Below, one piece after another: positions 6,438-51,174 of a stretch of 64,000 bases of DNA. Source of the DNA: Geodermatophilus sp. YIM 151500 (GTDB lineage: Bacteria > Actinomycetota > Actinomycetes > Mycobacteriales > Geodermatophilaceae); NCBI RefSeq assembly GCF_025716945.1, contig NZ_JAOVZT010000001.1:530271-594270 (forward strand), read 5' to 3'. Numbering within the stretch: the first letter of the stretch is position 1; the number at the start of each line of letters is the position of its first letter. The notes beneath the pieces were generated by a model, which was not told where the DNA came from, ran no database searches, and saw nothing but the letters and a program-made list of their open reading frames with translations. A program made the position numbers and the translations under genes.

Positions 6438-6440
6438 GCG

Positions 6441-6755: not shown

Positions 6756-6854
6756 GCCGCTCTCCCCTCGGACCCCGTGGACGGGCGGAGGGTCCCGACG
6801 CGCGGAGCCGGCACGCAAGGAGAACTGCTCCGTCCGGCGCGGTGGTCCGGCCGG

Positions 6855-7814: not shown

Positions 7815-7933
7815 GGTTTACTACAGCGGAGCTCCCTCCTCAGCGGCGGCTCCGCCGGGTCGGTCCAGGAGGTTGGTGGATACCGGCGAGGGGGACGGCC
7901 GAGACCGACGGCGTGCTGAGTCGGGCTGTCGCT

Positions 7934-8896: not shown

Positions 8897-8936
8897 GCCG
8901 CCAGGGTGGCACGCCGCCCGGGCTCGACGACGCCGG

Positions 8937-9428: not shown

Positions 9429-9476
9429 GGCACCAGCCTCCCGGACGGCCTGGGACGTCGCGCGATCGGCTGGCGG

Positions 9477-9671
9477 TCAGCCGCCTCGTGCGAGACGTCT
9501 CACCGTGCCGAACACGTAGATGACCGAAAGCACGAAGAACAGCGCGCCCACCGCAGCTCGCACCTGGTCGTCGGTCATACCTGAGTGCCTGGCGATCGGC
9601 CCGGCGACGGCATCTCCGACCTTCGCTCGCCACCCTTGGAGGCCGGCCTTGCCGAACGAGACTGGGTCCAT
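9477..9671 (-). CDS. Small single-pass membrane protein
   Basis: The 64-residue product has an amphipathic N-terminal half (MDPVSFGKAGLQGWRAKVG), then one strong membrane helix (VGALFFVLSVIYVFGTV) ending in Arg-rich residues. ATG 9671 is preferred; GTG 9677 two codons earlier is possible. I recognise no named family. It lies between the Nudix and P450 genes, all on the minus strand. Confidence 0.55.
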   Translation of the reverse strand: MDPVSFGKAGLQGWRAKVGDAVAGPIARHSGMTDDQVRAAVGALFFVLSVIYVFGTVRRLARGG

Positions 9672-9723
9672 GGACACCTACTACCCGTCGGGGCCCTCGG
9701 AGTAGACCGCGCCGTCCCCCGTG

Positions 9724-34353: not shown

Positions 34354-37300
34354 GTGGGAGACCTGGCGCCAGGGCTGTACGAACACCTGCTGACGGCGGC
34401 ACTGCACGGTCGGTTAGCGAGCACGGACCCGGAGCTGGTGTCCCTCGGCGAGCCCGACCCGGTCGATGCGCACGAGGCGCTCACCCGCCACGTCGCCGCG
34501 CTGGTGTCACGGGCCCTGCGCATCGCCGGCGGCAATGACCGGGCAGCGGTCCAGCGACAGGTGCACCTGGCCAACGAGATGGTCAAGGCCATCACCGCCC
34601 TGGCGCCCGACGCGGCCACCGCGAGCGACGACATCGTCGAGTCGCCGCGAACGCTCCTCGCCATCGCCCCGCCCGCGACCACGCCCGGGCCGACGTCCTT
34701 CCCCGAGCGGCCCGCCGTCCCCCTGTCCACCAGCGCCCTGCTGGTCAACGGTCGCGGTCAACCGGGCATCGGCTTCGAGGTCGCCCGCGAGCTCGCCTCC
34801 GCGGACTCGGTGGACCTCCTCTGCGCCTTCATTAAGTGGCAGGGCCTGCGCGTGATCGAGAAGCAGCTTGGCGACATGCGCGAGCGCGGCGGCCGACTGA
34901 AGGTCATCACCACCACGTACCTGGGCGCGACCGACCAGCGGGCGCTCGACCGCCTCGTCGAGCTCGGCGCCGAGGTCAAGGTCTCGTACGAGACGCGCAC
35001 GACGCGGCTGCACGCCAAGGCCTGGCTGTTCCACCGCGCCACGGGTCTCTCGACGGCCTACGTCGGCTCGTCCGACCTCTCCCGCAACGCGCTGACCGAC
35101 GGCCTCGAGTGGAACGTGCGGCTGTCCAACGTCGAGCAGGCGCACCTGCTCACCACCTTCGCCGAGACCTTCGACTCCTACTGGCTCGACCCGTCGTTCG
35201 AGACCTACGACCCGCACCGCGACGGCGACCGGCTCCGCGAGGCACTAGCCGCCGAGCGCGGCGGCCCATCGGACCTCCCGATCGAGATCACCACGCTCGA
35301 CGTCCGCCCCTTCGGCTACCAGCGGGAGATCCTCGAAGCGCTCGATGCCGAGCGCAGCGTCCACGACCGGTGGCGCAGCCTCGTGGTGATGGCGACCGGC
35401 ACCGGCAAGACGATCGTCTCCGCGCTGGACTACCGGCGGCTGCGGGACAGCGGCACGGCCGACCGCCTGCTGTTCGTCGCCCACCGCGAGGAGCTGTTGT
35501 CCCAGAGCCTGTCGACGTTCCGGCACGTGCTGCGCCAGGGCGACTTCGGTGAGCTGTTCGTCGGCGGGCAGCGTCCGCGCGAGTGGCGCCACGTGTTCGC
35601 GTCGATCCAGTCGCTTCACCAGATCGACCTCGCCGACCTCGACCCGCGCCATTTCGACGTGGTCGTCGTGGACGAGTTCCACCACGCTGAGGCGGTCACC
35701 TACCGGCGGCTGCTCGAGCACATGCAACCCGCCGTCCTGCTCGGGCTGACCGCGACGCCCGAGCGCACCGACGGCGCCGACGTGCGGACTTGGTTCGACG
35801 GGCGCATCGCCGTCGAACGGCGGCTCTGGGAGGCGCTGGAGCAGGGCTTGCTCGCGCCGTTCCAGTACTTCGGCATCCACGACGACGTCGCGCTCGACCA
35901 GCTGCGGTGGAAGCGCGGCCGCGGCTACGACGTCGCGGAGCTGACGAAGGTCTACACCGGTGACGACCACCGCGTCCGGCTCGTCCTGCAGGCGGTCAAG
36001 GACAAGGTCGAGGACGCCGGCAGGATGCGGGCGCTCGGCTTCTGCGTCAGCGTCCAGCACGCGCAGTACATGGCCGAGCGGTTCTCCCGGGCCGGCATCC
36101 CCAGCCGCGCGGTGACGTCGAGTCGACCCGCGAGGAGCGCGCGGCGGCGGGGCCGCTCTGCGCGACCGGACGGTCAATGTCCTGTTCACCGTCGACCTGT
36201 TCAACGAGGGCCTCGACATCCCGACCGTCGACACGGTGCTGTTCCTCCGCCCCACCGAGAGCGCGACGGTGTTCCTGCAGCAGCTGGGCCGCGGGCTGCG
36301 GCTGGCCGAGGACAAGGCGTGCCTGACCGTGCTGGACTTCATCGGCGCCCAGCACCGGGAGTTCCGCTTCGACCTGCGCTTCCGTGAGCTGACCGGCAGC
36401 TCGCGCCGAGGTCTGCAACGCGACGTCGAAGCCGGCTTCCCCACCCTGCCGGCGGGCTGCCACATTGAGCTGGACCGGGTGGCGCAGCAGGTCGTCATCG
36501 ACAGCATCAAGCAGTCGCTCACCGTGTCCTGGAAGGGGCTGGTCAGCGAGGCCACGAGCCTGCAGTCGCCCTCGCTGGCCGAGTTCCTCGAGGAGACCGG
36601 GGTCGAGGTGGAGGACCTGTACCGCGGGAACGGCCGCAGCTGGCTGGACCTCAAGCGGGCCGCCAGCTGGGACGAGGAGGAGCCGGGCCCGGACGACGCG
36701 GCGCTCGGTGCCGCATTCGGCCGCATGCTGCACGTCGATGACCTGGAGCGACTGCAGCTCTTCCGGTCGCTGACGCGGGACGACGCCGCGGGGCAGCGGA
36801 ACGCTCGCCTCCGCCGCCTGGTCGCGATGCTGCACTTCTCGCTCTACGGCTCGCGGACGCCGTTCAGCAGCGTCGAGGCGTCAGTCGCGCGGTTGCTCGC
36901 GAACCGGGGCCGCGCCGACGAGCTCGTCGAGCTCAGCGGTGTGCTGCACGAGCGCATCCAGCGCGTGACCCCGCCGCTGGGTGAAGCGAGTGACCGGCCC
37001 CTGCACGTCCACGCGCGGTACAGCCGCGACGAGGCCCTGGCGGCCTTCGGGTTGGAGAACCTCAACGGCACCTGGGGCTCGGGCGTGCGCTGGGTGAAGG
37101 GCGACCGGGCCGACGTCTTCTTCGTGACGCTGGAGAAGACCGAGGCGCACTTCTCCCCCACCACGATGTACGCCGACCACGCCATCACTCCGACGCTGTT
37201 CCAGTGGGAGTCACAGAACGCGACGGCCGCGGTGTCCCCGACCGGGCAGCGCTACGTCCACCACCGGGAGATGGGGTCGTCCGTGCACATGTTCGTGCGG

Positions 37301-37459
37301 GAGACCAAGACGGCGGACGGGACTCTGGGCACGCCGCCATACCTCTACGCCGGGCCCATGTCCTACCTGTCCCACACCGGCGAGCATCCGATGCGCGTCC
37401 TCTGGCAGCTGGACCATGCCCTGCCTGCAGACGTCTTCCACGCCGCCAAGGTTGCGTGA
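34354..37459 (+). pseudogene. PLD-nuclease/SF2 helicase/DUF3427 protein with two frame lesions
   Basis: The gene would encode about 1035 residues. Order: N-terminal DUF3427-associated helical region; phospholipase D-like nuclease (LHAKAWLFH near 219, then VGSSDLSRNAL); SF2 helicase (MATGTGKT 346-353, DEFHH near 440, LGLTATPER, then QQLGRGLRL); C-terminal DUF3427. Two 1-base losses near 36116 and 36150 shift the frame twice within 40 bases, between AGIPSRAV and LFTVDLFNEG. Such proteins occur in defence islands and probably process foreign DNA. If the lesions are real the gene is broken; if they are errors it is a full-length defence helicase. The GTG at 34354 is the best start. Confidence 0.87.
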
Positions 37460-37483
37460 GCTAGTGCTGCGGCTGCACTAGTT
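37459..37483. terminator. Bidirectional hairpin between helicase and GIY-YIG genes
   Basis: CTAGTGC (37461-37467) and GCACTAG (37475-37481) form a 7-bp stem, extendable with A-T and G-T pairs, with a 7-base loop. It overlaps both stop regions of the convergent genes. Confidence 0.65.
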
Positions 37484-38305
37484 GGCGTTGAGGCCGAACC
37501 GCCGCGTGAGCAGCTTGAACTTCCAGTACGACTCGATCTGCTCGATGGTGTCGTCGGGGGTATTGCCGTCGACGACTTCCAGCACCGACACCTGGTAGTT
37601 GCGGCGGCCGTGCCGGGCTACGGCCTTGAGGCGGACGTCGCCGCCGTCACCGCCGTTGGCGTACTCCAGCCAGCGGCCGAGCAGGCTGTCGGCACCCTTC
37701 GCCGAGCCGACGTACTGTAGTCCGGACTCGACGTCGACCAGCAGGTACACCCCCTTCACGGTGCGCAGCACCTGCTGCCAGCCGTGCGGGAGGGTGGGGA
37801 TGTCGTCGACCGGCCGGACGAACTCGCGGAACCCAGGGAAACGGGGTTCGTACTGCTCGGCGATCTCGAGGACCGGCTTGGGCTGGTTGGCAGCTCGCTG
37901 GACCCAGCTTCGAGTGCCGGCGCCCCAGTCGATGACGATCTTGTCGGTGTAGTCGCCGAGTCGCCCGAGCAGCCGCAGGTCGTAGTCGTGGTAGCCGGAC
38001 ACGTCGCCGCCGGTCAGGACGTCGACGGTGCCCGCCGGGCAGGTGGTGACGCCGGCGACCTTGTAGAGGCCGACGAACACGGTCTTCCGGGCCTCGGTCA
38101 CGATGAAGCTGGCGAGCAGGTCGCCCACGTCGAACAGGTTGCGCTGCTGGACGCTCTGGTACCGCTCGAACGCGGATCTGTCGCTTCGCCAGGCCTCGTA
38201 GAGCCGGCCGGGCTTCAGCCGGTTGTCCTGGTGCCGGACCAGGCGGACCTGCGCCGACTTTATGCCCTCGAGGGACAGCAGGTCGTTGAACGTCAGCATC
38301 GGCAT
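37478..38305 (-). CDS. GIY-YIG domain nuclease
   Basis: The 275-residue protein has a unique N-terminal region of about 175 residues. A GIY-YIG domain follows: KGVYLLVDVESGLQYVGSA (the GVY and YVG strands), then the Arg of LLGRWLEYANGG, a Glu in IEQIESYWKFKLLTRRFGLNAN and the C-terminal Asn. The catalytic set is present. The N-terminal part contains TVFVGLYKVAG and may bind DNA or a modified base. It ends 18 bases from the convergent PLD-helicase gene, suggesting a shared defence module, though opposite orientation rules out one operon. Confidence 0.82.
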   Translation of the reverse strand: MPMLTFNDLLSLEGIKSAQVRLVRHQDNRLKPGRLYEAWRSDRSAFERYQSVQQRNLFDVGDLLASFIVTEARKTVFVGLYKVAGVTTCPAGTVDVLTGGDVSGYHDYDLRLLGRLGDYTDKIVIDWGAGTRSWVQRAANQPKPVLEIAEQYEPRFPGFREFVRPVDDIPTLPHGWQQVLRTVKGVYLLVDVESGLQYVGSAKGADSLLGRWLEYANGGDGGDVRLKAVARHGRRNYQVSVLEVVDGNTPDDTIEQIESYWKFKLLTRRFGLNAN

Positions 38306-38599: not shown

Positions 38600-39420
38600 G
38601 TCCCCGGGTCGATCGGCCAGCGGCAGCGTGATCAACGAGGGTGCGGCGCCCCCGTGGCTGATCCGATGGTGGGTCGGCAGCCCGTGCGAGGACTGACCGA
38701 CCGGCTCGCCGGTGCCGAGATTGCGCGCGTACCTCCGGATGGGCACCGCCGGAGACCTGCAGCCGGACCCGCCGCCGGCCCGGAAGTGCTGCGCGGTGTC
38801 GGGCAGCGTCGTCTCCACCACCCGCTCCCCCTTGACCGGCTCCTCCCCCGGCGCGGGGTCGAGCCGGACCAGCCGGTCGGTGATGTTGACCGACTTCCCG
38901 TTCAGGCCGACGTCACACAGACGCACGAACACGTCGGCGTACGGGTTGTCCGACTCGACGAACAGCCGGACACGCACCTCGACCGGTTTTCGGAGCGGCG
39001 GCGTGGTGAAGCTGCGGACGTCGTCGCGCGCCTCCAGCTCCGTGTTGTCACGCGGGCCGGCGCCCCGCGCGAGCACGCGGCCGCCAACCGACGGCGTGGG
39101 GTCCATGGGGTCGTAGCGGAACGTCGTGGCCGAGGCCTGGGCCGGCGGGTGGTCCTGCAGACGTCCGTCCGACGCCAGGAACCAGGTGCGGTCGGTGGTG
39201 GCCGACGGCCAGTCGGGCAGCTTGCGCCAGGTGCGCGCGACGGTGACGTAGACGCGGACGCGGCTCTCTCGCGGCGGCACGGGGTCGGCCCCGGAGATCG
39301 GCAGGTGAGTGTTCAGCCAGGCGAGGCTCTTGACCGCCGACACCGCCGGGTCGATGGTGAGGTGCGCCCACGGGAGGATCGTCATCCCGACGTCGACCCC
39401 GCGGTCGCGCAGCGTGCCGC
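38600..39420 (-). pseudogene. CocE/NonD family hydrolase remnant (C-terminal half)
   Basis: The minus-strand frame encodes the C-terminal beta-sandwich of CocE/X-Pro dipeptidyl-peptidase-like esterases: PWAHLTIDPAVSAVKSLAWL, a WRKLPDWPS segment, FTTPPLRKPVEVRVRLFV, FVRLCDVGLNGKSVNITD and RYARNLGTGEP. The N-terminal alpha/beta-hydrolase catalytic domain is absent. Sequence after VETTLPDTAQHFRAGG is degraded, though the true end (about SLITLPL) is still visible. The gene is truncated at the 5' side, where an unrelated plus-strand fragment begins. Confidence 0.85.
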
Positions 39421-39422
39421 GC

Positions 39423-39572
39423 GGCTGGCTGGCGCGCGAGAAGGGGATGTCGGTCGAGGAGGCAACGGCGCTCGTGGCCGAGCGCTGGCCGCACCTGGGT
39501 CTGTGGAACCAGAGCTTCACCGCCGCGCTCGAGCGCCTTGCCACGCAATCCCACGACGACGGGCAGCGATGA
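39423..39572 (+). pseudogene. Fragment of an unidentified plus-strand gene
   Basis: The frame LAREKGMSVEEATALVAERW then PHLGLWNQSFTAAL and stop at 39572 looks like the C-terminus of a real soluble enzyme, but the family is not certain. It has no upstream start of its own and butts directly against the truncated CocE gene, so it is likely a gene tail left by a deletion. Confidence 0.45.
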
Positions 39573-40011
39573 ACGCCATCGACTTCGCGAGGTCTGCCGG
39601 CAGATCACCGTACGCGTCGCCGAGTGGACGACTGCCTCCAGCGGCTGATGCCACTCTGTCGGACCCCTCGCCTAGCCTTAGCCGCGGCCACTTGATCGCG
39701 CCGGCAGAACGATGATCCACTGCCTCAGTCAGGCGTCCGTCCGCGCTCCGACCCGCCGACACCCCCGGAGACCACCCCTCCCTCACGACTGAAGGAAGCG
39801 AGCAGCACGAACACGGAGTCGGCGGCGGCGCAACGACCGCCGGCCAACGCAGGTCACAGCATGTGTGGCTGCAGACGAGACGGCGGGTCCCCCACAGGGC
39901 GACCTAGGCCTCGACTACGTTGGACACCGTGCACGGCCGACCGTTTTCCGTAACAGACGAGATAAGCAATCCCCACCGTGCCATTAGTTTGTCATAGTCG
40001 AGGGGAATACG
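39573..40011. other. Intergenic gap and left edge of low-GC island
   Basis: No gene is seen in these 440 bases. GC content falls visibly from about 39930 onward (for example AACAGACGAGATAAGC and TTAGTTTGTCATAG), marking the likely junction of the foreign restriction-modification island. GAGGGG at about 40000 serves the methyltransferase start. Confidence 0.55.
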
Positions 40012-41265
40012 GTGACAAACGACCTTACGTACATCAGCCTCTTTAGCGGCATAGGCGGCCTGGAACACCCCGAGGCAGCACCTGTGCTGGTTTGCGAATC
40101 AGACCCCGATTGCCAGGTTGTACTCCGGCGACAATACCCAAATAGCGAGATTTGGCCCGACGTCGAAACGCTCGATCCCCCGCCGGCACAGATGATCGTG
40201 GGCGGATGGCCATGTCAAGACCTCAGTTCCGCTGGGCTGCAGACCGGACTATCCGGTGTGCGCTCGAGTCTTTTCTTTGAAATGCTGCGAGTGGCCAAGG
40301 ATAGTGGTGCCGAGACAATAATCGGGGAAAACGTTCCGAATCTCCTCTCCCTGAAGAAGGGGGCAGACTTCGCGGCGCTTCTGCGCGCCCTCACTGACGG
40401 CGGATACCCCTTCGTCGCTTGGCGAGTGATCAATGCGCGCTCCTTCGGCCTGCCTCAGGACCGTAAGCGCTTGTTTATTGTCGCCTCCAAAACAAGGGAA
40501 TGCGCTGAGGCCATCCACGCGCGCCTCCCCCACCAGCCGCAGTCCATCGCCGCTTTCGAGGGCGGGCCAGCGGGATTCTACTGGACTGGCGGTAAGAGGT
40601 CGATCTGCTTTTCTGAGGGTTTTGTCCCTGCCCTCAAGATCGGCGCCACGGACGATGCCGGCCGCTCCCCAGTTGCCGTCCTCATCGACGGACGTGTCCG
40701 GAAACTCAATCTGCCTGAAAGCCTGCGACTTCAGGGGCTTAGCCACCTGCGCCTGACAGGAGTGAGCCGATCCGCCGCTTTGCGGATGACCGGCAATGCC
40801 GTTGCAGCCCCCGTAGGACGTTTCGTCGTGGAGTCGGTCAGCCAATGCGCATCACCCGCGGGCAACCCAACAAAGACCGCAGCATTTACCCCGTCGGGAC
40901 TTCTCCTGCGTAACGGCGAAGTACTGTCCGTGCAGCACAAGAGTGGTCCGATGGCCAGAAACTTGGACGACTTTCTGGACCGTGCCGACAAGGGTAGCCT
41001 CAGCGCACAGGCCGCCGCTGGACTCATCGTTCGTTCAGTGCGCTCCGGACTACCCATGCCGCGCGAATTGTTCGATGCTCTGGCCGACACGGCCATGGAT
41101 CGCGAAGGTGGCCTCCGGCCGTCGCGGTCTGATAGCTTCGCCGCACTTGACGGCATGCAGGCACACGTTAGTAGCTACGCACAGCACCTTCCACGCATGA
41201 TCGACAGCCGTCGGGGGCGGTCGCGCTTGTTGCGCACCAAAGAACTGTACAGGAGCGCAAGTTGA
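40012..41265 (+). CDS. dcm: C5-cytosine DNA methyltransferase
   Basis: The 417-residue enzyme has all core C5-MTase motifs: FSGIGGLE (11-18), GGWPCQDLS with catalytic Cys68, GENV (105-108), LPQDRKRLF (148-155) and GNAVAAPVG (261-269). The target-recognition region between motifs VIII and IX is short. After motif X an extra 145 residues of unknown type follow. The GTG start has GAGGGG upstream. TTGA overlap couples it to the next methyltransferase. Codon use is AT-richer than its chromosomal surroundings. It presumably protects host DNA against the linked nuclease or supplies a second modification. Confidence 0.93.
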   Translation: MTNDLTYISLFSGIGGLEHPEAAPVLVCESDPDCQVVLRRQYPNSEIWPDVETLDPPPAQMIVGGWPCQDLSSAGLQTGLSGVRSSLFFEMLRVAKDSGAETIIGENVPNLLSLKKGADFAALLRALTDGGYPFVAWRVINARSFGLPQDRKRLFIVASKTRECAEAIHARLPHQPQSIAAFEGGPAGFYWTGGKRSICFSEGFVPALKIGATDDAGRSPVAVLIDGRVRKLNLPESLRLQGLSHLRLTGVSRSAALRMTGNAVAAPVGRFVVESVSQCASPAGNPTKTAAFTPSGLLLRNGEVLSVQHKSGPMARNLDDFLDRADKGSLSAQAAAGLIVRSVRSGLPMPRELFDALADTAMDREGGLRPSRSDSFAALDGMQAHVSSYAQHLPRMIDSRRGRSRLLRTKELYRSAS

Positions 41266-43073
41266 ATTACTCTGGCGAGCCCTCCGGCCCGCAGTCACCG
41301 CTCGCGTATCGCCTTGCGTTGCTCCAGGAAGCGTTTCCCGAAGCCTTTCTCGACGGCCAGCTTGACGTCGCCCTGATCGCGGACTTAGCGGGAACCGAAG
41401 AGGCCACGGCAAGCGAGGAACCGGTCGGATTCTCCTGGCCCGGGCGCACGGCGGCGCTTCACAGCCTGCGTCAGAAGCCAGCATCTGCCCTCGCGCCGAC
41501 GGCCTCCGTGGTGGGGGCGGCTTGCCACGTCTTCGTCACCGGCGACAACTACGAAGTTATGAAGCTGCTCCAACCCGCCTATGGCGGCGCGGTGAAGATG
41601 GCTTTCTTGGACCCCCCATATAACAATGGCCAAGATGAAGTGTACGTGGACGATTTCGACGACGCCTGGACTCGATACTCGGAGCACGAGGCAGCTGTCG
41701 ATGACGGTCGCCGGTCGCCAGCGCTAGCGTCGAGCGGCGGGCGCGGCCGCCATAGTCGCTGGTTGACCATGATGCTGCCGCGTCTTTACGTTACACGGAA
41801 CCTTCTGAGTGAAGATGGGGTCGCCTTCGTCGCGATCGACGACCACGAGGTACACCGCCTGCGACTTCTCATGGATGAGGTTTTCGGACCCGAGAACTTC
41901 GTCTGTAACCTTGTTTGGGAGAAGCGCTATTCGCCGGCTCCGGACGCCAAAGACGTGGGTTACGTCCACGAGAACATCCTGTGCTATCGGAAGTCCGCGT
42001 CCTTCGGCGCCTCGCTGCTACCCATGTCCGAGGCGCAGCGGAGCCGGTACCAGAATCCCGACAATGACCCCCGCGGGCCCTGGAAGTCGGCCGACTATAC
42101 TTGCCGGTTCACAGCCGACGAGCGGCCAAATCTGTACTACCCCATCAGTCACCCACAGACCGGCCAGGAAGTATGGCCGAAGAGGAGCCGTGTTTGGGCG
42201 TGCACCAAAGAGGAACACGAGCGCCAGAAGGCTGAGGGCCGGCTGTGGTGGGGGCTTGACGGAAGCAACTCGGTGCCTGCACGGAAGGCGTACTTGTCAG
42301 AGATCCGCCAGGGCCGTATGCCTTCGACTCTTCTACGACACACGGACGTTGGCCACACGGATGATGCGGCTAAGGAGATCCGCAGATTCTTTCCCGACCT
42401 TCGGTACAGCGGGAAGCCTGTAGCGCTGATCAGGCAGTTGATGCAAATCGCGGGAGTAACTCACGGCGACGTAGTCCTTGATCCTTTCGCCAGGACGGGG
42501 ACAACGGCTGAGGCAGTGATCGCCGAACGGCTCTCGACCGGGAGTTCGGCACGATTCCTGCTTATTGGGCTACCTGAACCCGTGGGCGGTGCTGGACCCT
42601 CGCGAACCCTACCTGAGGTTGCGCTCGCGAGGGCTCAGAGTTGCTTGACGGCCGGAGGAGAACCCGCAGGCAGACTCCGCGCATTCCGTCAAAGGCGGGG
42701 CATCTTCCTTCCCGCGCTTCCGCAGACCGCAACTGAAGAAGCCCAGGATCATCTTTTCGAAGGCGTTCGATACATTGACCGGACAGCGACCGACGAGTCC
42801 TTGGCGGTGAATATCGCGCTTGCCGACGGTATCCCCTTGGACGCTGTCGTCGAGGCCCACTCGCTCTCTGGGGGTTCCCAGGCGTACGTATTCGGCGGCG
42901 AGCTTGCAGTGTGTGTCGCAACGTCTCTGACGTCCTTCGCCGTTGATGCGCTCAGCGCATTGACGGTTCATCGCATCATCTGTCTTGAGGAGAGCTTCAC
43001 CGGACAGGACGAGCTGTTGATGAATACGAGACTTCGAATGAAGGAGCGCTGGATCTCCTTCGAGACACTGTAG
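41262..43073 (+). CDS. Type III-like site-specific N6/N4 DNA methyltransferase (Mod)
   Basis: The 603-residue amino-methyltransferase has motif IV DPPYN (117-121) before a long target-recognition region, and the late motif I-like DPFARTGTTAEAV near 406, the beta-class order used by type III Mod subunits. An amino-terminal extension and a C-terminal domain of about 170 residues flank the core. It would methylate adenine (or N4-cytosine) at the site used by the Res subunit downstream. Translation starts at TTG 41262 with AGGAG nearby, overlapping the dcm stop. It lies 7 bases from res. Confidence 0.9.
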   Translation: MNYSGEPSGPQSPLAYRLALLQEAFPEAFLDGQLDVALIADLAGTEEATASEEPVGFSWPGRTAALHSLRQKPASALAPTASVVGAACHVFVTGDNYEVMKLLQPAYGGAVKMAFLDPPYNNGQDEVYVDDFDDAWTRYSEHEAAVDDGRRSPALASSGGRGRHSRWLTMMLPRLYVTRNLLSEDGVAFVAIDDHEVHRLRLLMDEVFGPENFVCNLVWEKRYSPAPDAKDVGYVHENILCYRKSASFGASLLPMSEAQRSRYQNPDNDPRGPWKSADYTCRFTADERPNLYYPISHPQTGQEVWPKRSRVWACTKEEHERQKAEGRLWWGLDGSNSVPARKAYLSEIRQGRMPSTLLRHTDVGHTDDAAKEIRRFFPDLRYSGKPVALIRQLMQIAGVTHGDVVLDPFARTGTTAEAVIAERLSTGSSARFLLIGLPEPVGGAGPSRTLPEVALARAQSCLTAGGEPAGRLRAFRQRRGIFLPALPQTATEEAQDHLFEGVRYIDRTATDESLAVNIALADGIPLDAVVEAHSLSGGSQAYVFGGELAVCVATSLTSFAVDALSALTVHRIICLEESFTGQDELLMNTRLRMKERWISFETL

Positions 43074-43080
43074 GAGCGAA

Positions 43081-45669
43081 GTGTCACTGAAGTTTGATGC
43101 GAGTCAAGCCCATCAGCTTGCCGCGATCCACGCCGTAGACGCGGTCTTTCATGGGCAGGCCGCCGACATCGCTGCCGGGGCCTCCACACTGCGTGACGAC
43201 GATGCCATCATCGTCGGAAACTCCCTCATCCTCAGTGCGGATGAAGTCTTGGCAAACTTGAGGGACGTGCAGGTATCCCAGGGGCTTCCACCTTCTGACG
43301 GCGTTGGATCCCGGCTCGACCTGACCGTCGAAATGGAAACCGGGACGGGGAAGACCTACACCTACCTGCGCACGATCCATCACCTATACCGCACGCGTGG
43401 CCTACGAAAGTTTGTTGTCGTCACCCCGTCGGTGGCGATTCGGGAGGGCGTCGCCAAGTTCGAAAACATGACGCGGTCGCATTTTGCGTCGTTGTTTGGC
43501 CCTGACCGGGCGACGTTTCGCGTCTATGACTCGTCTAGACCTTCTTTGATTAGACAGTTCGCAACTTCTGACCGTGCAGAAATCTTGCTTATCGGCCTCG
43601 ACTCTTTCAACCGAGTTTCTAATCTGATGTTTCAGGAGGCGGAGGCACTTGACTATAGTCGACCGATAGATCTCATCAGCTCGTGCATGCCAGTCGTAAT
43701 ACTTGACGAGCCGCAGAATATGGAGGGCGATGCAGCGAGGCTAGCAATAAGCCGACTGCGTCCGCTGATTGTACTTAGATACTCGGCTACCCACCGGGAA
43801 GTTGTTAATCCAATCTATAGGCTGGGCCCAGTCCAAGCATACGAGCGCGGTCTCGTCAAGAAGGTCGATGTTCTGTCGGTAACCGACGCAATGACGGGTG
43901 CCGCCCGTATTGAACTTGTCTCCGTAGACGTTCGCCCACATAGTCCGCCCAGGGCAGTTGCTAAGATTTGGGTGAAGACGGCCGCTGGTGTAACGCAGAA
44001 GAGCATCCGACTCTCCGTTAATGACGATCTAAGAGACCTGAGCGGAGGTCGGGACGAGTACCGGGGCTACGTTGTGTCCCGGGTCGATGGTGGCCGATCC
44101 GCTATTCACTTCGCAAATGGCACCTCGATCCGTGCCGGCGAGAGATACGGTGTAGACCTCGCCGCTATTCAACGCGCACAGATAGCTGAGACGATTCGCG
44201 AGCACCTGGAGCGCGAGCTGCTACACCGGGAGCACGAACTCCCGCTCAAGGTGTTAAGCGTCTTCTTCATAGATCGGGTTGCGCGATATGCGGCTTCCGA
44301 GGGGGATATCCGGACACACTTTGTGCAGGCTTATAAGGAGCTTGCGGCCGAACCACGATTTGCCGGCTTGCACCTTCCGTCAGTGGAGCATGTGCATCGC
44401 GGCTATTTTGCGTCACGCCGCGGCGTTGCTGTGGACACGACCGGCGACAGCAAGGCCGATCGGGACACCTACGAGCTCATCATGCGGGATAAGGAGCGCC
44501 TGCTCAGCCTTTCAGAACCGACGCGCTTTATTTTTTCACATAGCGCACTGCGCGAGGGCTGGGACAACCCGAATGTGTTCCAGATCTGTACGCTCAACCA
44601 GACGAAGAGCTCTCTGAAGAAGCGGCAGGAAATCGGGCGGGGGCTTCGGCTGCCCGTGCTGGACGACGGCAGTCGATGCGTGGATCCAAACATTGCGCGG
44701 CTCACGGTAGTTGCAAACGAGTCCTATGAAGAGTTCGCAAGGGAACTGCAGCGCGAGTTCGAGGAAGACTGTGGAGAATCCTTCCACGGGACCACGAATC
44801 GACGCGAACTAATAGATATTAACCTGATAGACGGTTGGAGGCAGAGTCCACTGCTGCGGAAGCTGTGGCGAGGGATCTCACGCGAGGCTACGTATAGTGT
44901 GGTGCTCGACGAGGAGGCGCTCATCAGGGAAGCCGCAGATTCAGTCAAGCACCTGGACGTCGAAGAGGGTCGGTCAGTTGTGTCCACGAAGGCGTCCCTA
45001 GACATTGGAACGCAGGGTGTCGTCCCAGTAGTCAGCGCTATCAGCACGTCGGCTCGGGAAACATCCCGGGCTGGCAGTGACATTCGGAGTTTGTTGACTG
45101 CTTTGCACGCACGGACGGGTGTGACCCGCGATGCTCTACTTCGAGTTCTGCAAACGTCCGGGCGTACTCGAGAACTGCTCGAGTATCGGAGGTCGGTGTG
45201 GGACCGCCTTGCCGAAGAGATCAACGGCGCCGTAGCGCGAGTGATTCTTGATGGGCTCAACTACACGCAAACGAGGACGGCCAAGCCCCTGGCCCTTCTC
45301 GAGCGGCCCGGTAGAGCGATTGCTTCGAAGACGGTCGTCTCTACAAAGTCTCTTTATGACCGAACCCCCTGGCAATCCGAAGTTGAGAGAGACTTCGCTG
45401 TTGGCCTGGAGGCGCGTCAGGACGTTAAATATTACATCAAGTTGCCTCAGGCCTACACGGTGAGCACAGTGCTTGGACCACATACGCCGGACTGGGCCAT
45501 TGTGCTGGACCGAAACGGCGAAGAGGTTGTCGTTATTGCCGAGACGAAGGGCGATCCAAGTCAGTTGCAGCTCCGCGAGGCCGAGTGGATGAAGATTCGT
45601 TGCGCGGAGGACCACTATCGTGCCTTAGGCGTGGAGTACCGGGTGCTGTCGAGCATCTCCAATCTCTAG
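43081..45669 (+). CDS. Type III restriction subunit Res (SF2 helicase-nuclease)
   Basis: The 862-residue protein has METGTGKT (Walker A, 85-92), ILDEPQNM (Walker B, near 209), IGRGLRLPV (motif VI, near 520) and a C-terminal PD-ExK nuclease (TPDWAIVLD then AETKGD at about 820). These make it the translocating and cleaving subunit of a type III-like enzyme. AGGAG precedes GTG 43081. Its codon use includes many A/T-ending codons that are rare in the flanking genome. It forms one operon with the two methyltransferases. Confidence 0.92.
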   Translation: MSLKFDASQAHQLAAIHAVDAVFHGQAADIAAGASTLRDDDAIIVGNSLILSADEVLANLRDVQVSQGLPPSDGVGSRLDLTVEMETGTGKTYTYLRTIHHLYRTRGLRKFVVVTPSVAIREGVAKFENMTRSHFASLFGPDRATFRVYDSSRPSLIRQFATSDRAEILLIGLDSFNRVSNLMFQEAEALDYSRPIDLISSCMPVVILDEPQNMEGDAARLAISRLRPLIVLRYSATHREVVNPIYRLGPVQAYERGLVKKVDVLSVTDAMTGAARIELVSVDVRPHSPPRAVAKIWVKTAAGVTQKSIRLSVNDDLRDLSGGRDEYRGYVVSRVDGGRSAIHFANGTSIRAGERYGVDLAAIQRAQIAETIREHLERELLHREHELPLKVLSVFFIDRVARYAASEGDIRTHFVQAYKELAAEPRFAGLHLPSVEHVHRGYFASRRGVAVDTTGDSKADRDTYELIMRDKERLLSLSEPTRFIFSHSALREGWDNPNVFQICTLNQTKSSLKKRQEIGRGLRLPVLDDGSRCVDPNIARLTVVANESYEEFARELQREFEEDCGESFHGTTNRRELIDINLIDGWRQSPLLRKLWRGISREATYSVVLDEEALIREAADSVKHLDVEEGRSVVSTKASLDIGTQGVVPVVSAISTSARETSRAGSDIRSLLTALHARTGVTRDALLRVLQTSGRTRELLEYRRSVWDRLAEEINGAVARVILDGLNYTQTRTAKPLALLERPGRAIASKTVVSTKSLYDRTPWQSEVERDFAVGLEARQDVKYYIKLPQAYTVSTVLGPHTPDWAIVLDRNGEEVVVIAETKGDPSQLQLREAEWMKIRCAEDHYRALGVEYRVLSSISNL

Positions 45670-45936
45670 ACGCGGCGGCATGGCGGTGGTGTGGCGAGAG
45701 CCTGAGCGACGGCTTGCAACTGCTGCTCGTGCACGGTAGATGCTTGTCTTCAGTGCTCAGGAGATTGCGCGCATTAGGCCTGCGACGGAGCACGTCTTCA
45801 GTTAAAATTGCGCCTCCGGCGAACTAGGCCGATGAGCGCTCCCTCGCAAGCCTGAACCCACCGGCACTCTTGTCTCTTTGCTAATGTCAAGGGAGCAAGC
45901 GGACAGTCGTCGGAAAGAGGGCGCACCAGGGCATGC

Positions 45937-46425
45937 CTAGTCGATGGCATGCTTCTGTGGCGTCGACTGTTGCTTCCTAGTGCGCCTTTTGTGCACCACG
46001 CGATATATCTGGGTGGCAACAGAGGCGGGTTCCTCGTGGGCCCAGAATCTTAACGCCACCCATCCCGCTTGGTCGAGCAGTTCGTTCGTTTCATTATCGC
46101 GGAGCCTATTGGCTGCAATCTTGTTGTCCCAAAAGTCTCTGTTCGTCTTCGATGCAACGTAGTGCCGCGGGCACCCGTGCCAAAAGCATCCGTCAACGAA
46201 CACAGCTACTCGTTGCCCGGGAAATACCAGGTCGGCGGTGCGTCGGACGCCAGCTAGGGGCGCCGTCGCGACTCGGTAGCGCAAACCGAGTGCGTGCGCC
46301 GCTCGCCGTACGGCGAGCTCCGGACGCGAATCCCTGTGTCGGTTTCCGCGCATGACTCGTTGCGCGGCAGCACTTGAGGCCCATGAGGGTTTGCCGCCGC
46401 GTGAGGGCGGGAGGTTGTCAGTCAC
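45937..46425 (-). CDS. vsr: Very short patch repair endonuclease (Vsr)
   Basis: The 162-residue protein carries the Vsr motifs: SRPELAVRRAAHALGLRYRV, TADLVFPGQRVAVFVDGCFW (catalytic Asp and metal ligands), HGCPRHY, and NRDFWDNKIAANRLRDNE. Vsr nicks T:G mismatches created when 5-methylcytosine deaminates, so its presence beside a C5 methyltransferase makes functional sense. It converges on the res gene. GTG 46425 is the start; the RBS is weak. Confidence 0.93.
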   Translation of the reverse strand: MTDNLPPSRGGKPSWASSAAAQRVMRGNRHRDSRPELAVRRAAHALGLRYRVATAPLAGVRRTADLVFPGQRVAVFVDGCFWHGCPRHYVASKTNRDFWDNKIAANRLRDNETNELLDQAGWVALRFWAHEEPASVATQIYRVVHKRRTRKQQSTPQKHAID

Positions 46426-46456
46426 TCAGGCTCAGCTTCGCTGCCGCAGTTTCTGC

Positions 46457-47056
46457 CTACTTCAAGCTTCGCAGAACTCCCACCACCCTGCCTAGTGCTT
46501 GCGTCTCGGCACCGGCCTGGTGCGACTCAGGCTCGCAGGAGTTGTCTGGATAGTAGCCGGCCTGGACTCGCCCTCCGCACACGAAAGCGTAAAGGCGTCC
46601 TACTTGGGGCGTTCTCTCCGAGATGACGAGAAGGTCTCCAGCCAGAATGGCGGCGGCAGGAAAGGGGTCATCGGCTCGGACCAGGACGGCATCGACCGGA
46701 ACGAGGGCATCAGGCAGAGCCAGGACGCGACGCTCTCGAGCATTGCTCCCACGTCTATTCATTATCGCTTCCGCGGACATAAGGGGCGTGTAGTTAAGCG
46801 TGCTTTCGAGATTTGATGACACGCCAGCTAGCTGGAGCGAAGTAGCTCTGGGTCTGCGCGCTTCACGCTGCACTGCACCGAGAGCTTGTAGGGCACGCAG
46901 GTGTGCCAGAACCGTCCCCGGACTCTTATATCCGAGTCTTGAGGCCAATTCGCGCATGGATGGCGGATAACCATCGCGGTTGAGCAGATCTTGGAACGCG
47001 TCGAGAACTGCACGCTGCTTGGGGGTGAGCAGTGCTTGTGTCGATGCGCCAGTCAC
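46457..47056 (-). CDS. LexA-like repressor with degenerate S24 protease domain
   Basis: The 199-residue protein has a LexA winged-helix N-terminus (LTPKQRAVLDAFQDLL; RDGYPPSMRELASRLGYKSPG) and a C-terminal S24-type fold (ILAGDLLVISERTPQVG). The self-cleavage parts are gone. The catalytic Ser position (GxSM in LexA) reads ADDPF with Pro131, no Lys aligns with the LexA general base, and no Ala-Gly cleavage pair occurs in the hinge. It would therefore be a repressor that does not respond to RecA by autolysis. It starts at GTG 47056 with AGGAAG upstream and lies upstream of vsr on the same strand, so it may control vsr and the R-M genes. Confidence 0.8.
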   Translation of the reverse strand: MTGASTQALLTPKQRAVLDAFQDLLNRDGYPPSMRELASRLGYKSPGTVLAHLRALQALGAVQREARRPRATSLQLAGVSSNLESTLNYTPLMSAEAIMNRRGSNARERRVLALPDALVPVDAVLVRADDPFPAAAILAGDLLVISERTPQVGRLYAFVCGGRVQAGYYPDNSCEPESHQAGAETQALGRVVGVLRSLK

Positions 47057-47069
47057 GGCTTCCTCACGA

Positions 47070-47094
47070 TCACTGTACGTCTCCCATGCAGTGA
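47070..47094. promoter_or_regulatory. Inverted repeat upstream of the LexA-like gene
   Basis: TCACTG (47070-47075) and CAGTGA (47089-47094) are inverted with a 13-base spacer, 14 bases upstream of the repressor start codon. It could be an autoregulatory operator, though six-base arms may occur by chance. No canonical TCGAAC-N4-GTTCGA box is seen here. Confidence 0.3.
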
Positions 47095-47715
47095 CCCGAA
47101 CAAAGATGGGTCTTGAGTCCCGCGACGGATGTCGTCACTGAGGCGCAGTAGCCCAGGCGTCGGCACACAGAGCCGGCGCTGCTCTCGTGCGATCGGGTGT
47201 GCTCATCCGGCTGAAAGACGTCTGCTCCACCTTCGAGTTGGGCGCTGCTCCGCGGGTGACGTTACAACGTACGCTGGGCGTTGACTGTCTCTCCAGGGCG
47301 GCTCGCTGCGTCCGCAAGGAGCAGCGACTGGAGGCCTCAAGAGTCCCACGCTTGAGCATTGCAGAGGTCCCGCTGCCGGTCACGCTTGCTGCTATGGCTG
47401 GGCGGGCGAGCGAGGCTCACCCGCGCGATCGCACAGGGCCGTTGAGGCGCTGCGTTACAGCGATCCAACGCCCGGTCGCGGGCCTGCAAACTGCCGTGGA
47501 AGAGATCGCAGCCGTACGGGTCTTCCTGCCGTCCCATCGGGGCATCATGGCTCTGTTCCGCCGTCTGCCGTAGGCCGCTGAGGCCGCGCACGAGGCGACG
47601 CGCCTAGCCGCGAGAGCGGCCACCGGCGCTGCATCGCGGCAGACGTCGATCACAGCCAAGGTGAGCCCGTTAGCGACGTCGCCGGGGCGCCGCCACGAGC
47701 GGAAGGTGCGGCGGC
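47095..47715. other. Intergenic gap at right edge of island
   Basis: These 620 bases carry no recognisable gene. Frames of up to 128 codons exist but their composition is not protein-like. The GC content climbs back toward the chromosomal level, so the right junction of the R-M island lies somewhere here. Confidence 0.5.
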
Positions 47716-48305
47716 ATGCACGCTCGATCCCTCGACGCCGGCATCGCCTTCACACGTGACGAGGTGATGCCGGCGATCCAGCAGATCGACGGCTGCATCG
47801 GCCTGTCCATGCTCACCGACCGCGAGAGCGGCCGCTGCCTCGTTACGACGTCCTGGGCCAACGCCGACGCCATGCGCGCCGCCACCGAGGACGTCCACCC
47901 CATCCGACTCATGCAGGCCCTCGGCGCCCAAAGCCTCGACATTTTAGGAGTGGGAGATCGCCGTCCTGCACCGGGAACGCCCGGCCGGGGACGGCGCCGG
48001 CGCCCAGGTCACCTGGGCCCGCATCCCGCCGACCACCTGAACGAGCTCCTCGACGCCTACCGCCACAACCTAATGCCGCGACTGCAGGACCTAATGGGCT
48101 TCGACAGCCTGAGCATGCTGGTCGACCGGCGCACCGGTCGCACGGTCAGCGTCACCGCCTTCGAGACCCGCGACGCCCTCGTGCTGGTCCGCAAGCAGGC
48201 CAAGCACCTGCGCGAGCAGTTCGCCCAGGCCATGGGCGCTCGCATCACCGACATCGCCGAGATGGACCTCGCCGTCGCCCACCTGCGGGTCCGAAAACGA
48301 TCTGA
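47716..48305 (+). pseudogene. Antibiotic-biosynthesis monooxygenase-like protein, frameshifted
   Basis: The gene encodes two tandem ABM-like halves: CIGLSMLTDRESGRCLVTTS and FDSLSMLVDRRTGRTVSVTA each precede a helix. Three frame breaks interrupt it: near 47945 (before WEIAVLHRERP), near 48030 (before DHLNELLDAY) and near 48288 (before a plausible C-terminal PKTI stop). The usual product is about 200 residues. ATG 47716 has a GGAAGGTG-like RBS. It is a pseudogene unless the sequence has base-loss errors. Confidence 0.75.
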
Positions 48306-49042: not shown

Positions 49043-49807
49043 TCACTCCGGCGTCACGTACGCCCCCGAGATCCCGCCGTCCACCAGGAACGTCGAGGCG
49101 GTCATGAACGACGAGTCGTCGCTGGCCAGGAAGGCGACGGCCGCGGCGATCTCCTCGGGCTCGGCGAAGCGGCCCAGCGGCACGTGCACCAGCCGGCGCG
49201 CTGCGCGCTCCGGGTCGGTCGCGAACAGCTCCTGCAGCAGCGGCGTGTTCACCGGCCCTGGGCACAGCGCGTTGACCCGGATCCCCTCCCGGGCGAACTG
49301 CACCCCGAGCTCCCGGCTCATCGCCAGCACCCCACCCTTGGAGGCGCTGTACGAGATCTGCGACGTCGCCGCGCCCATCACCGCCACGAACGACGCGGTG
49401 TTGATGATCGAGCCCTTGCCCTGGCGCTGCATGTACGGGATCGCCGCCTTGCAGCACAGGAACACCGACGTCAGGTTCACCTCCTGCACCCGGCGCCAGG
49501 CGTCCAGGCCGGTCACCAGGATGGAGTCGTCGTCCGGCGGCGAGATGCCCGCGTTGTTGAACGCCACGTCCACCGAGCCGTAGGTCTCGTGCGCCGCCGC
49601 GAACAGCGCCTCCACGTCCGACTCGCTCGTCACGTCACAGCGCACGAACGTCCCGCCGCACTCGTCGGCCGCCCGCTTGCCGGCGTCCTCGTCGACGTCG
49701 GCCACCACCACCCGGGCGCCCTCCGACGCCAGCCGCAGCACCGACGCCAGCCCGATCCCGCTCCCCCCGCCGGTCACCACCGCGACCCGGCCGCTCAACC
49801 GCTCCAT
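49043..49807 (-). CDS. Short-chain dehydrogenase/reductase
   Basis: The 254-residue SDR has TGGGSGIG (cofactor), DVDED, NNAGIS, the catalytic YSASKGG pair (Tyr and Lys), and the C-terminal VDGGISG motif. It oxidises or reduces an alcohol or ketone with NAD(P). It is the last gene of the minus-strand operon with aldehyde dehydrogenase, PuuD-like hydrolase and glutamine synthetase homologue; its ATG overlaps the aldehyde dehydrogenase stop by one base. A role in amino-alcohol or amine breakdown follows from context only. Confidence 0.92.
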   Translation of the reverse strand: MERLSGRVAVVTGGGSGIGLASVLRLASEGARVVVADVDEDAGKRAADECGGTFVRCDVTSESDVEALFAAAHETYGSVDVAFNNAGISPPDDDSILVTGLDAWRRVQEVNLTSVFLCCKAAIPYMQRQGKGSIINTASFVAVMGAATSQISYSASKGGVLAMSRELGVQFAREGIRVNALCPGPVNTPLLQELFATDPERAARRLVHVPLGRFAEPEEIAAAVAFLASDDSSFMTASTFLVDGGISGAYVTPE

Positions 49808-51174
49808 CAGCGCTCCTCCGTCGCCAGGAAGACGTTCTTCGTCTCGGTGAACGAGGCCAGCGCGTCCGGGCCCAACTCCCGCCCCAGCCCCGACTGCTTG
49901 AACCCGCCGAACGGCGTCGCGTACCGCACCGACGAGTGCGAATTCACCGACAGGTTGCCGGCCTCCACCCCCCGCGACACCCGGAAGGCCCGGCCGACGT
50001 CCCGCGTCCAGATCGAGCCGCTCAGCCCGTACTCGCTGTCGTTGGCGATCCGCACCGCGTCGTCCTCGTCGTCGAACGGCACCACCGCCACCACCGGGCC
50101 GAACACCTCCTCGCGCAGCAGCGGGTCGTCCGCCCGCGACGGCGTCACCACCGTCGGCGGGAACCAGAACCCCGGCCCCTCCGGCGCGCTCCCCCGGAAC
50201 GCCACCGGCGCATCCGACGGCACGTACGAGGCCACCTTCGCCCGGTGCTCCCCCGAGATCAGCGGCCCCATCTCCGTGTCCGCCGACGCCGGATCACCCA
50301 CCCGGAACCCCGTCACCGCTGGCTCCAGCAGCTCCATGAACCGGTCGAACGCCGATCGCTCCACCAGGATCCGCGAGCGCGCGCAGCAGTCCTGACCCGC
50401 GTTGTCGAACACCCCGCCCGGCGCCGCGGCCGCCGCCTTCTCCAGGTCGGCGTCGGCGAACACGATGTTCGCGCTCTTGCCCCCGAGCTCCAGCGTCACC
50501 CGCTTCACCTGCGCGGCGCAGCCGGCCATCACCTGCTTGCCCACCTCGGTGGACCCGGTGAACGACACCTTGCGCACCAGCGGGTGCTCGACGAACCGCT
50601 GCCCCACCACCGAGCCCTTGCCCGGCAGCACCTGGAACACGTCCTCGGGCAGCCCCGCCTCGCGCGCCAGCGACGCCAGCCGCATCGCCGTCAGCGGCGT
50701 GATCTCCGCCGGCTTGAGCACCACGCAGTTCCCCGCCGCCAGCGCCGGCGCGAACCCCCACACCGCGATCGGCATCGGGAAGTTCCACGGCACGATCACC
50801 CCGACCACGCCCAGCGGCTCCTGGAACGTCACGTCGACCCCGCCGGCCACCGGGATCTGCCGGCCGAACAGCCGCTCCGGCGCCGCCGCGTAGTACTCGA
50901 GCACGTCGCGCACGTGCCCGGCCTCCCACCGCGCGTTGGTCAGCGTGTGCCCGCTGTTGCGCACCTCCAGCGACGCCAGGTGCTCCACGTCGGCGTCCAC
51001 CGCGTCGGCGAAGCGGCGCAGCAGCCGCGCCCGGTCGGCCGGCGCCATCCGGCGCCACGACGCGTGCGCCGCGGCGGCCCGCGCTATCGCAGCGTCCGTC
51101 TCCGGAGCCGACGTCAGCGCCACCTCCTCCAGCGGCGTCTCATCGGCCGGGTTGACCAGCTGGATCGTGCTCAC
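49807..51174 (-). CDS. Aldehyde dehydrogenase (PuuC/GabD-like)
   Basis: The 455-residue NAD(P)-dependent aldehyde dehydrogenase shows VVPWNFPMPI, SFTGSTEVGKQVM, the active-site glutamate in LELGGKSANIVFADAD, and the catalytic Cys in NAGQDCCARSRI. It likely oxidises the gamma-glutamyl amino-aldehyde formed from ethanolamine or a polyamine. It overlaps the PuuD-like gene by 4 bases and the SDR gene by 1, which indicates a tight operon. Confidence 0.93.
   Translation of the reverse strand: MSTIQLVNPADETPLEEVALTSAPETDAAIARAAAAHASWRRMAPADRARLLRRFADAVDADVEHLASLEVRNSGHTLTNARWEAGHVRDVLEYYAAAPERLFGRQIPVAGGVDVTFQEPLGVVGVIVPWNFPMPIAVWGFAPALAAGNCVVLKPAEITPLTAMRLASLAREAGLPEDVFQVLPGKGSVVGQRFVEHPLVRKVSFTGSTEVGKQVMAGCAAQVKRVTLELGGKSANIVFADADLEKAAAAAPGGVFDNAGQDCCARSRILVERSAFDRFMELLEPAVTGFRVGDPASADTEMGPLISGEHRAKVASYVPSDAPVAFRGSAPEGPGFWFPPTVVTPSRADDPLLREEVFGPVVAVVPFDDEDDAVRIANDSEYGLSGSIWTRDVGRAFRVSRGVEAGNLSVNSHSSVRYATPFGGFKQSGLGRELGPDALASFTETKNVFLATEER

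What the first reader, a model, noticed from the sequence alone, without database searches (positions are those of the whole stretch)
39930..47095. Foreign low-GC island carrying a hybrid C5 plus type III-like R-M system with Vsr and a LexA-like repressor
One operon combines a C5-cytosine methyltransferase, a beta-class Mod methyltransferase and a Res helicase-nuclease, all overlapping or 7 bases apart. A Vsr gene faces it, with a repressor on the far side. Classic type III systems need only Mod and Res, and Vsr normally pairs with a lone C5 enzyme, so this five-gene set is not a textbook class. Lower GC and A/T-ending codons show recent transfer. The two methylations could be used by one nuclease, or the C5 arm may be a separate protector.
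Basis: partly seen in the sequence, partly recalled or inferred. Interest (0 to 1): 0.75.

Follow-up and report, generated by a model that had tools for sequence, protein, structure and literature searches.

The report
Type III restriction system plus cytosine methyltransferase
A foreign-looking defence island pairs an ATP-driven type III DNA-cutting system with an extra cytosine-marking enzyme and its repair nuclease; one far-related bacterium has the same enzyme pair, which hints that the two marking enzymes work together, although their real DNA targets are untested.

Summary
C5 methyltransferase, type III Mod and Res form one tight operon, a Vsr gene faces it, and a LexA-derived repressor gene precedes vsr. 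All five genes share one foreign composition (GC3 0.59-0.70; six nearby genes 0.88-0.98).

Best filed as a type III R-M system with added genes, not a new class. Most relatives lack the extras: C5 lies near 2 of 80 Res relatives and 0 of 20 actinobacterial Mod relatives. But one of the two, in an Acidobacteriota MAG, carries Vsr-C5-Mod-Res in one operon, and its C5 is by far the closest found (54%). Its Mod and C5 recognition regions match the window's unusually well, while its Res and Vsr look differently derived. That suggests C5 and Mod travel as a modification pair with linked targets (inferred, two examples).

Oddities: Mod has arginine in SAM motif I where 77 of 77 homologues have glycine, and the repressor lacks LexA's Ser-Lys dyad, so SOS self-cleavage is unlikely. 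Boldest open reading: C5 supplies host protection while Mod mainly recognises DNA. Rivals: independent cargo, or early decay.

The parts
40012..41265 (+). C5-cytosine DNA methyltransferase, 417 aa, GTG start; motifs FSGIGG, GGWPCQ, ENV, QDRKR, ESLRLQG, GNAV present; C-terminal extension of about 130-140 aa
   Evidence: extension aligned with L147 C5
40567..40689 (+). recognition-like core of the C5 enzyme (residues 186-226), 78% identical to the L147 C5 enzyme, mean 27% to the other C5s of the set
   Evidence: boundaries chosen after seeing the alignment
41262..43073 (+). type III Mod, beta-class amino-methyltransferase, 603 aa, TTG start overlapping the C5 stop by 4 bases
   Evidence: PDB 6k0w E 3e-53 and EcoP15I Mod 4zcf E 2e-39; AlphaFold2 model mean pLDDT 82.5 matches 4zcf and 6k0w best
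41907..42410 (+). target-recognition region of Mod (residues 216-383), 57% identical to the L147 Mod
   Evidence: boundaries chosen after seeing the alignment
42492..42494 (+). codon 411 of Mod: Arg inside SAM-binding motif I (FARTG) where 77 of 77 full-length homologues have Gly
   Evidence: 77 of 95 Mod ORFs were at least 500 aa; 18 shorter ones dropped
43081..45669 (+). type III Res, helicase plus C-terminal PD-(D/E)XK nuclease, 862 aa; Walker A GTGKT, DEPQ, SATH, GRGLR, PD...ETK intact
   Evidence: EcoP15I Res 4zcf_C E 2.5e-51
45937..46425 (-). Vsr-type mismatch endonuclease, 162 aa, convergent to Res
   Evidence: 1cw0 alignment
46457..47056 (-). LexA-derived repressor, 199 aa: LexA winged helix kept, Ser-Lys dyad replaced (Pro and Gly by alignment), no Ala-Gly cleavage motif seen by eye
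   Evidence: contrast with host LexA L193 and L041
39987..40020 (.). possible operator: perfect 8-base inverted repeat GTTTGTCA/TGACAAAC around the C5 start codon (weak, inconclusive)
   Evidence: 2 matches in the window against 0.29 expected; 6 of 100 shuffles had at least as many

Best explanation
A horizontally acquired type III restriction-modification system with a doubled modification arm. Shown: the gene set, its composition, and a C5 whose closest relative found sits in another Mod-Res operon. Inferred: the C5 enzyme and Mod mark the same or overlapping asymmetric target, for example one strand each, as in the type II systems Hin4II and HpyAV. Mod with Res then cuts DNA that lacks the protecting mark, using ATP and two opposed sites. 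Vsr repairs the T:G mismatches that arise when 5-methylcytosine deaminates. The LexA-derived repressor controls the unit by some signal other than RecA-driven self-cleavage.
For: Four-base overlap and 7-base gap in the C5-Mod-Res operon. Same foreign composition in all five genes. A Res-based scan, blind to C5, brought in L147, whose operon is Vsr-C5-Mod-Res; its C5 is 54% identical to the window's and its sister with support 1.0 among 34 rows. Surveys of 396, 396 and 388 genomes found no other member of that C5 subfamily, nor did two narrower ones of 191 and 200; in them at most 4, or 9, candidates per genome were scored. Mod recognition regions are 57% identical; of 1027 other Mod pairs with similar core identity only 5 reach that, mean 19%. 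C5 recognition core 78% against 27% to others. A clade of the two Res proteins is rejected (AU p 6e-5), and L147's Vsr groups with three acidobacterial Vsr proteins (0.94) with the window's outside, so C5 and Mod are the parts that stay together. Looser cases: L120 has another C5 plus Vsr between a Mod remnant and Res; viral contig L237 has another C5 before Mod and a Res-like helicase, without Vsr. Precedent for C5 plus adenine enzymes on one asymmetric site: PMC2816704, section 5.
Against: Only two loci share this C5, both without methylome data. Without its recognition columns, the window's Mod has a very long branch and its place is unresolved; a clade with L147 is neither shown nor rejected (AU p 0.485). 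The Res test also rests on a long window branch, for which the tool warns. In the Vsr tree the window's protein lies just outside the group of seven that holds L147's (0.89). Plasmid locus L151 has a related Mod recognition region (46%) and no C5 by annotation or search, though IS genes crowd its upstream side. The Mod motif I change could mean Mod methylates poorly or not at all. 78 of 80 Res relatives show no C5 in the DNA held; only 50 of the 80 have 1.5 kb or more upstream of Mod.
Confidence: 0.45

Rival explanations
1. Independent cargo. A C5-Vsr(-repressor) cassette happened to join a type III operon in a defence island; the C5 enzyme is a separate methyltransferase whose gene is kept because Vsr or the repressor makes its loss costly.
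For: Vsr lies near 11 of 14 actinobacterial and 8 of 9 acidobacterial C5 relatives that have no Mod or Res match nearby. Mod-Res operons often carry something between: gap of 500 bases or more in 35 of 67 and 5 of 14 loci, measured between profile matches, so broken genes count too. L041 has LexA-Vsr facing two C5 genes with another putative nuclease pair. Caulobacter VsrA makes loss of the C5 enzyme ScmA costly (PMC12907096, passages). L120 and L237 show C5s of other lineages joining Mod-Res.
Against: In window and L147 the two C5s are each other's closest found, both sit directly before Mod, and both recognition regions are better kept than expected.
Confidence: 0.35
2. Early decay. The Mod-Res part is under relaxed constraint in this host and may be partly inactive; the C5-Vsr part may be what still works.
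For: Arg in motif I; long Mod and Res branches (6.06 against median 0.61; 2.38 against 0.25); 13 of 54 highly conserved Mod columns changed, where the median homologue has 1.
Against: All five frames are open; Res helicase and nuclease motifs are intact; the window's Mod is not the most changed of its set, two homologues have 25 and 20 changed columns; the Mod recognition region is not accelerated against L151; the Mod model is confident around motif I.
Confidence: 0.2
3. The C5 enzyme has taken over host protection and Mod is kept mainly as the DNA-recognition subunit of the Mod-Res nuclease.
For: Motif I Gly to Arg unique among 77; non-recognition parts of Mod fast, recognition part not (100/37 against 12/25 with L151 as outgroup, Fisher p 1e-5); the C5 gene is kept before Mod. 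EcoP1 and EcoP15 cut, incompletely, with or without SAM (PMC3874151 section 17).
Against: Other outgroups give p 0.0002, 0.002, 0.04, 0.056, 0.23 and 1.0; Res is fast too; L147 Mod has a normal motif I; SAM makes EcoP15 complexes more stable and faster cutting (same section).
Confidence: 0.12

Closest known systems
Type III R-M (EcoP1I/EcoP15I; m4C type III systems such as Eco86II and BspHIV)
   Same: Mod and Res order, families and motifs; best solved matches are 4zcf (EcoP15I) and 6k0w. An extra helicase-like ATPase gene 5' of mod is described for some (PMC8259958, whole text read); L147 has an SNF2-type gene there, with near full-length relatives (40-54%) in 7 other loci of L051-L150. That this is the ATPase of the paper is inferred.
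   Different: An in-operon C5 enzyme, Vsr and a repressor; no SNF2-like gene in the island; Arg in motif I.
Hin4II / HpyAV type II systems
   Same: A C5 and an N6-adenine methyltransferase for the two strands of one asymmetric site; separate M1 (C5) and M2 (N6A) genes precede the R gene in Hin4II (PMC2816704 section 5).
   Different: HNH nuclease, no ATP-driven Res, no Mod-Res complex; shared target in the window is unproven.
C5-Vsr cassettes, LlaJI-like systems included
   Same: C5 with a Vsr gene nearby; L041 also has a LexA gene before vsr. LlaJI has two C5 enzymes for one asymmetric site (PMC1459862, abstract).
   Different: No Mod or Res match nearby; C5s are about 26-37% identical to the window's over most of their length, up to 45% over shorter stretches; L041's LexA keeps the Ser-Lys dyad. 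The LlaJI likeness of L041 is by eye; its two middle proteins gave no Pfam match.
MORC/paraMORC-associated R-M neighbourhoods
   Same: Published neighbourhoods mix type III-like helicases, C5 methylases and Vsr (PMC2292703, passages); L120 resembles them, with a HATPase_c_3 protein.
   Different: The window has no such ATPase gene in the island.

Membership tests
Type III R-M | beta-class Mod with motif IV DPPY and recognition region between IV and I | tested here: met
   DPPYN at 117, motif I at 409; PF01555 and MTase_III profiles; fold
Type III R-M | intact SAM motif I FxGxG | tested here: not met
   FARTG; 77 of 77 homologues have Gly at that position. This touches activity more than descent, so I file the locus as a type III variant whose methylation is unproven
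Type III R-M | Res with SF2 helicase motifs and C-terminal PD-(D/E)XK | tested here: met
Type III R-M | ATP-dependent cleavage about 25 bases from one of two opposed sites; one-strand methylation | not testable with these tools
   needs biochemistry
C5 DNA methyltransferase | motifs I, IV (PC), VI (ENV), VIII (QxRxR), IX, X | tested here: met
Vsr endonuclease | profile match above curated cut-off | tested here: met
   TIGR00632 114 bits, cut-off 98
Vsr endonuclease | repairs T:G at the cognate C5 site | not testable with these tools
   needs assay
LexA repressor | LexA winged-helix DNA-binding domain | tested here: met
   PF01726 E 3e-17
LexA repressor | Ser-Lys dyad for self-cleavage | tested here: not met
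   aligned to 3k2z: Ser to Pro, Lys to Gly; host LexA L193 shows GDSM and ATVK
Two-methyltransferase system for one asymmetric site (Hin4II type) | both enzymes mark the same site | not testable with these tools
   only indirect support from recognition regions

The most novel reading that the evidence does not exclude
A type III restriction system whose self-recognition has moved, wholly or partly, to a C5 methyltransferase: Mod reads the site for Res but no longer supplies the main protecting mark, so 5-methylcytosine, with Vsr to repair its deamination, is the password for an ATP-driven Mod-Res nuclease.
Probability: 0.13. Interest if true: 0.75.

Novelty: new variant of a known kind. Interest (0 to 1): 0.45.

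Why it matters
Type III systems mark one strand only, which leaves one daughter duplex without a mark after each replication (PMC3874151, passages). A second enzyme tied to the same operon would be a new answer to that problem and would put 5-methylcytosine into type III restriction; PMC8259958 (whole text) knows m6A and m4C there. The pairing is testable by sequencing methylated bases in one strain.

Tried and rejected
SOS boxes (actinobacterial, Bacillus, Caulobacter, E. coli styles; the direct-repeat style on one strand only) at 39-48 kb: none. Shared junction repeats between 39400-40012 and 47056-47750: none of 11 bases or more. An SOS-cleaved LexA: rejected on the missing dyad. A viral origin: P0001 found no relative in viral contigs; the C5 pair alignment found five, all of other C5 lineages by segment identity of 28-46%; phage records cover only 63-74% of the C5 at 26-30% in the ten rows shown of 1280. 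Of 80 viral Mod loci, 55 have a Res match, 5 a C5, none Vsr. One of the five, L237, reads C5, Mod, Res-like helicase in one direction; its C5 and Res belong to other lineages (Res profile 45.6 bits; Pfam ResIII), so it shows that a C5 can stand before Mod elsewhere but is not the same set. Plasmid C5 and Mod relatives stay below 60% identity; of the 763 Mod records two neighbourhoods were opened, neither with an annotated C5, and two of the C5 records, one of which has no annotation. Plasmid Res hits were listed, their neighbours not opened. An empty-site comparison with relatives was not conclusive: the matches listed begin about 670 bases right of the island. Neighbours of the two Pseudomonadota C5 relatives (L190, L191) were not fetched. 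The idea of one frozen C5-Mod-Res-Vsr unit was dropped because Res and Vsr look differently derived.
Full report
What is there. The five genes are real and complete. C5 (40012-41265), Mod (41262-43073) and Res (43081-45669) run in one direction with a 4-base overlap and a 7-base gap; Vsr (45937-46425) and a LexA-like gene (46457-47056) run towards them on the other strand. Profile matches are clear for C5, Mod, Res and Vsr; the repressor has a LexA DNA-binding domain but stays below the curated LexA cut-off. All five share GC3 of 0.59-0.70 against 0.88-0.98 in six nearby genes, so they are compositionally one unit, foreign to this GC-rich genome (GC by block).

Surroundings. To the left lie a GIY-YIG gene matching PADLOC UzuA, a PLD-helicase-DUF3427 gene split over two overlapping frames, and an IS110 transposase. 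The island thus sits beside other defence-type genes. No junction repeat was found and I saw no integrase.

How usual is the set. 68 of these 80 have both Mod and Res matches in the DNA held, 50 have at least 1.5 kb upstream of Mod, and C5 occurs in 2, L120 and L147. Of 20 actinobacterial Mod relatives, 15 have both, 13 have 1.5 kb upstream, none has C5. In the other direction, 14 C5 relatives from 11 other genomes among 396 of the phylum, and 9 from 396 genomes of the Acidobacteriota, have no Mod or Res match in the stretch held, but 11 of 14 and 8 of 9 have Vsr there. So C5 with Vsr is common, Mod with Res is common, and the union is rare.

The key comparison. L147, from an Acidobacteriota MAG, reads SNF2-like helicase, Vsr, C5, Mod, Res, all in one direction with tiny gaps or overlaps. 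It was found through Res, and its Res is not close to the window's: it is 77th in the list of 80 and a clade of the two is rejected (AU p 6e-5; the window's row has a long branch, about which the tool warns). Yet its C5 is the closest C5 found in any search here (54%, sister with support 1.0 in a tree of 34 rows). The Mod recognition region is 57% identical, slightly more than the catalytic core at 53%; among 1027 other Mod pairs of similar core identity the mean is 19% and only 5 do as well. The C5 recognition core is 78% identical. I chose the region boundaries after seeing the alignments. Its Vsr belongs with three acidobacterial Vsr proteins (0.94), and the window's lies just outside the group of seven that holds them (0.89). 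The parts that stay together across two phyla are therefore C5 and Mod, with recognition kept, while Res and probably Vsr differ in origin. I read this as a modification pair with linked targets. That step is inference.

Limits of that reading. FastTree joined the two Mods with 0.99 support, but when the recognition columns are left out a better model gives the window's Mod an end branch of 6.06 and no firm place, and neither shows nor rejects the pair (p 0.485). The plasmid Mod of L151 has a 46% similar recognition region without a C5. L120 is a weaker case: another C5 lineage with Vsr and a HATPase_c_3 protein, a Mod remnant without DPPY, and a Res gene with one in-frame stop. Viral contig L237 has yet another C5 before Mod and a Res-like helicase of another lineage, without Vsr. 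The genome surveys scored at most 4 candidates per genome (9 in the narrower ones), so absence there is not complete.

Signs of change in the window's system. Mod motif I reads FARTG. In 77 of 77 full-length homologues the position of the Arg is Gly (18 of 95 Mod ORFs were shorter and were dropped). 13 of 54 highly conserved Mod columns differ, the median homologue differing at 1, two homologues at 25 and 20 and one more at 13; for Res it is 16 of 155, median 2, two homologues higher, with helicase and nuclease motifs intact. With L151 as outgroup, changes private to the window and to L147 are 100 and 37 outside the recognition region but 12 and 25 inside (Fisher p 1e-5); six other outgroups give 0.0002, 0.002, 0.04, 0.056, 0.23 and 1.0. 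Res is fast as well (178 to 93, same outgroup). So the type III part changes fast in this lineage while Mod's recognition does not, at least against L151. This fits a Mod kept for reading DNA more than for marking it, but also early decay. The structure model is confident (mean pLDDT 82.5; 93-94 in the blocks around motif I), except for residues 121-162 next to motif IV, which are below 50. It matches EcoP15I Mod and the sinefungin-bound Mod 6k0w best; it cannot tell whether SAM still binds.

Repressor. Aligned with a solved LexA (3k2z), the catalytic Ser and Lys are replaced by Pro and Gly. The host has another LexA at G000:C11:739789 with GDSM, ATVK and an IAAG cleavage site, and the LexA gene of L041, which also precedes vsr, has GESM, ATVK and VSAG. 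A RecA-driven self-cleavage switch is therefore unlikely here. The operator is not known; an 8-base inverted repeat over the C5 start codon is weak evidence.

Mechanism proposed. Marks: C5 puts 5-methylcytosine and Mod an amino-methyl mark on the same or overlapping asymmetric site (inferred; Hin4II and HpyAV are type II precedents, PMC2816704 section 5). Cutting: Mod-Res acts on unmarked DNA with ATP (by family). Upkeep: Vsr repairs deaminated 5-methylcytosine (by family) and may make loss of C5 costly, as VsrA does for ScmA in Caulobacter (PMC12907096, passages). Control: a LexA-derived repressor with an unknown signal.

Prior work. Searches for type III together with C5, Vsr or an extra methyltransferase showed no paper on such an operon by title or abstract start among the rows listed (1 of 1, 6 of 6, 15 of 24, 15 of 26, 2 of 2 and 12 of 23 papers). 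The closest are PMC8259958 (whole text: m4C type III systems and an extra helicase-like ATPase gene) and PMC2292703 (passages: neighbourhoods mixing type III-like helicases, C5 methylases and Vsr around MORC genes). REBASE and most subscription papers could not be searched. I rate it a new variant of a known kind.

Noticed in passing
window 34354-36387 and 36236-37459 (+): One PLD-helicase-DUF3427 gene (PADLOC mREase_IV) split over two overlapping frames that match successive parts of the same profile; it looks broken or frameshifted.
   Followed up: partly
window 37478-38305 (-): GIY-YIG protein matching PADLOC UzuA over nearly its whole length.
   Followed up: no
window 26638-29886 (-) and 32887-34014 (+): TM0106-family RecB-like nuclease joined to a helicase, and an IS110-type transposase.
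   Followed up: no
window 50149-50221 (-): ARAGORN calls a tRNA-Ala (AGC) inside what looks like an aldehyde dehydrogenase gene (49807-51174, named by eye); probably a false call.
   Followed up: no
window 47060-47730: About 670 bases right of the island have no match among those listed for 20 relatives, while the next stretches do; the right edge may lie here.
   Followed up: partly
L041:2744-9744: LexA-Vsr facing two C5 genes, with a P-loop protein and a partner between; LlaJI-like by eye, no Pfam match.
   Followed up: partly
L051-L150 (Mod-Res loci): Mod and Res matches are often apart: gap of 500 bases or more in 35 of 67 and 5 of 14 loci with Mod upstream of Res. In L149 two further genes lie between a Mod remnant and Res.
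   Followed up: partly
L237 (viral contig) 4174-10333: C5 of another lineage, then Mod, then a ResIII-type helicase, all in one direction, no Vsr: a looser C5-Mod-Res arrangement on a contig classed as viral.
   Followed up: partly
L247 (viral contig): Type III Mod-Res with a different C5 gene about 2 kb downstream on the other strand.
   Followed up: no
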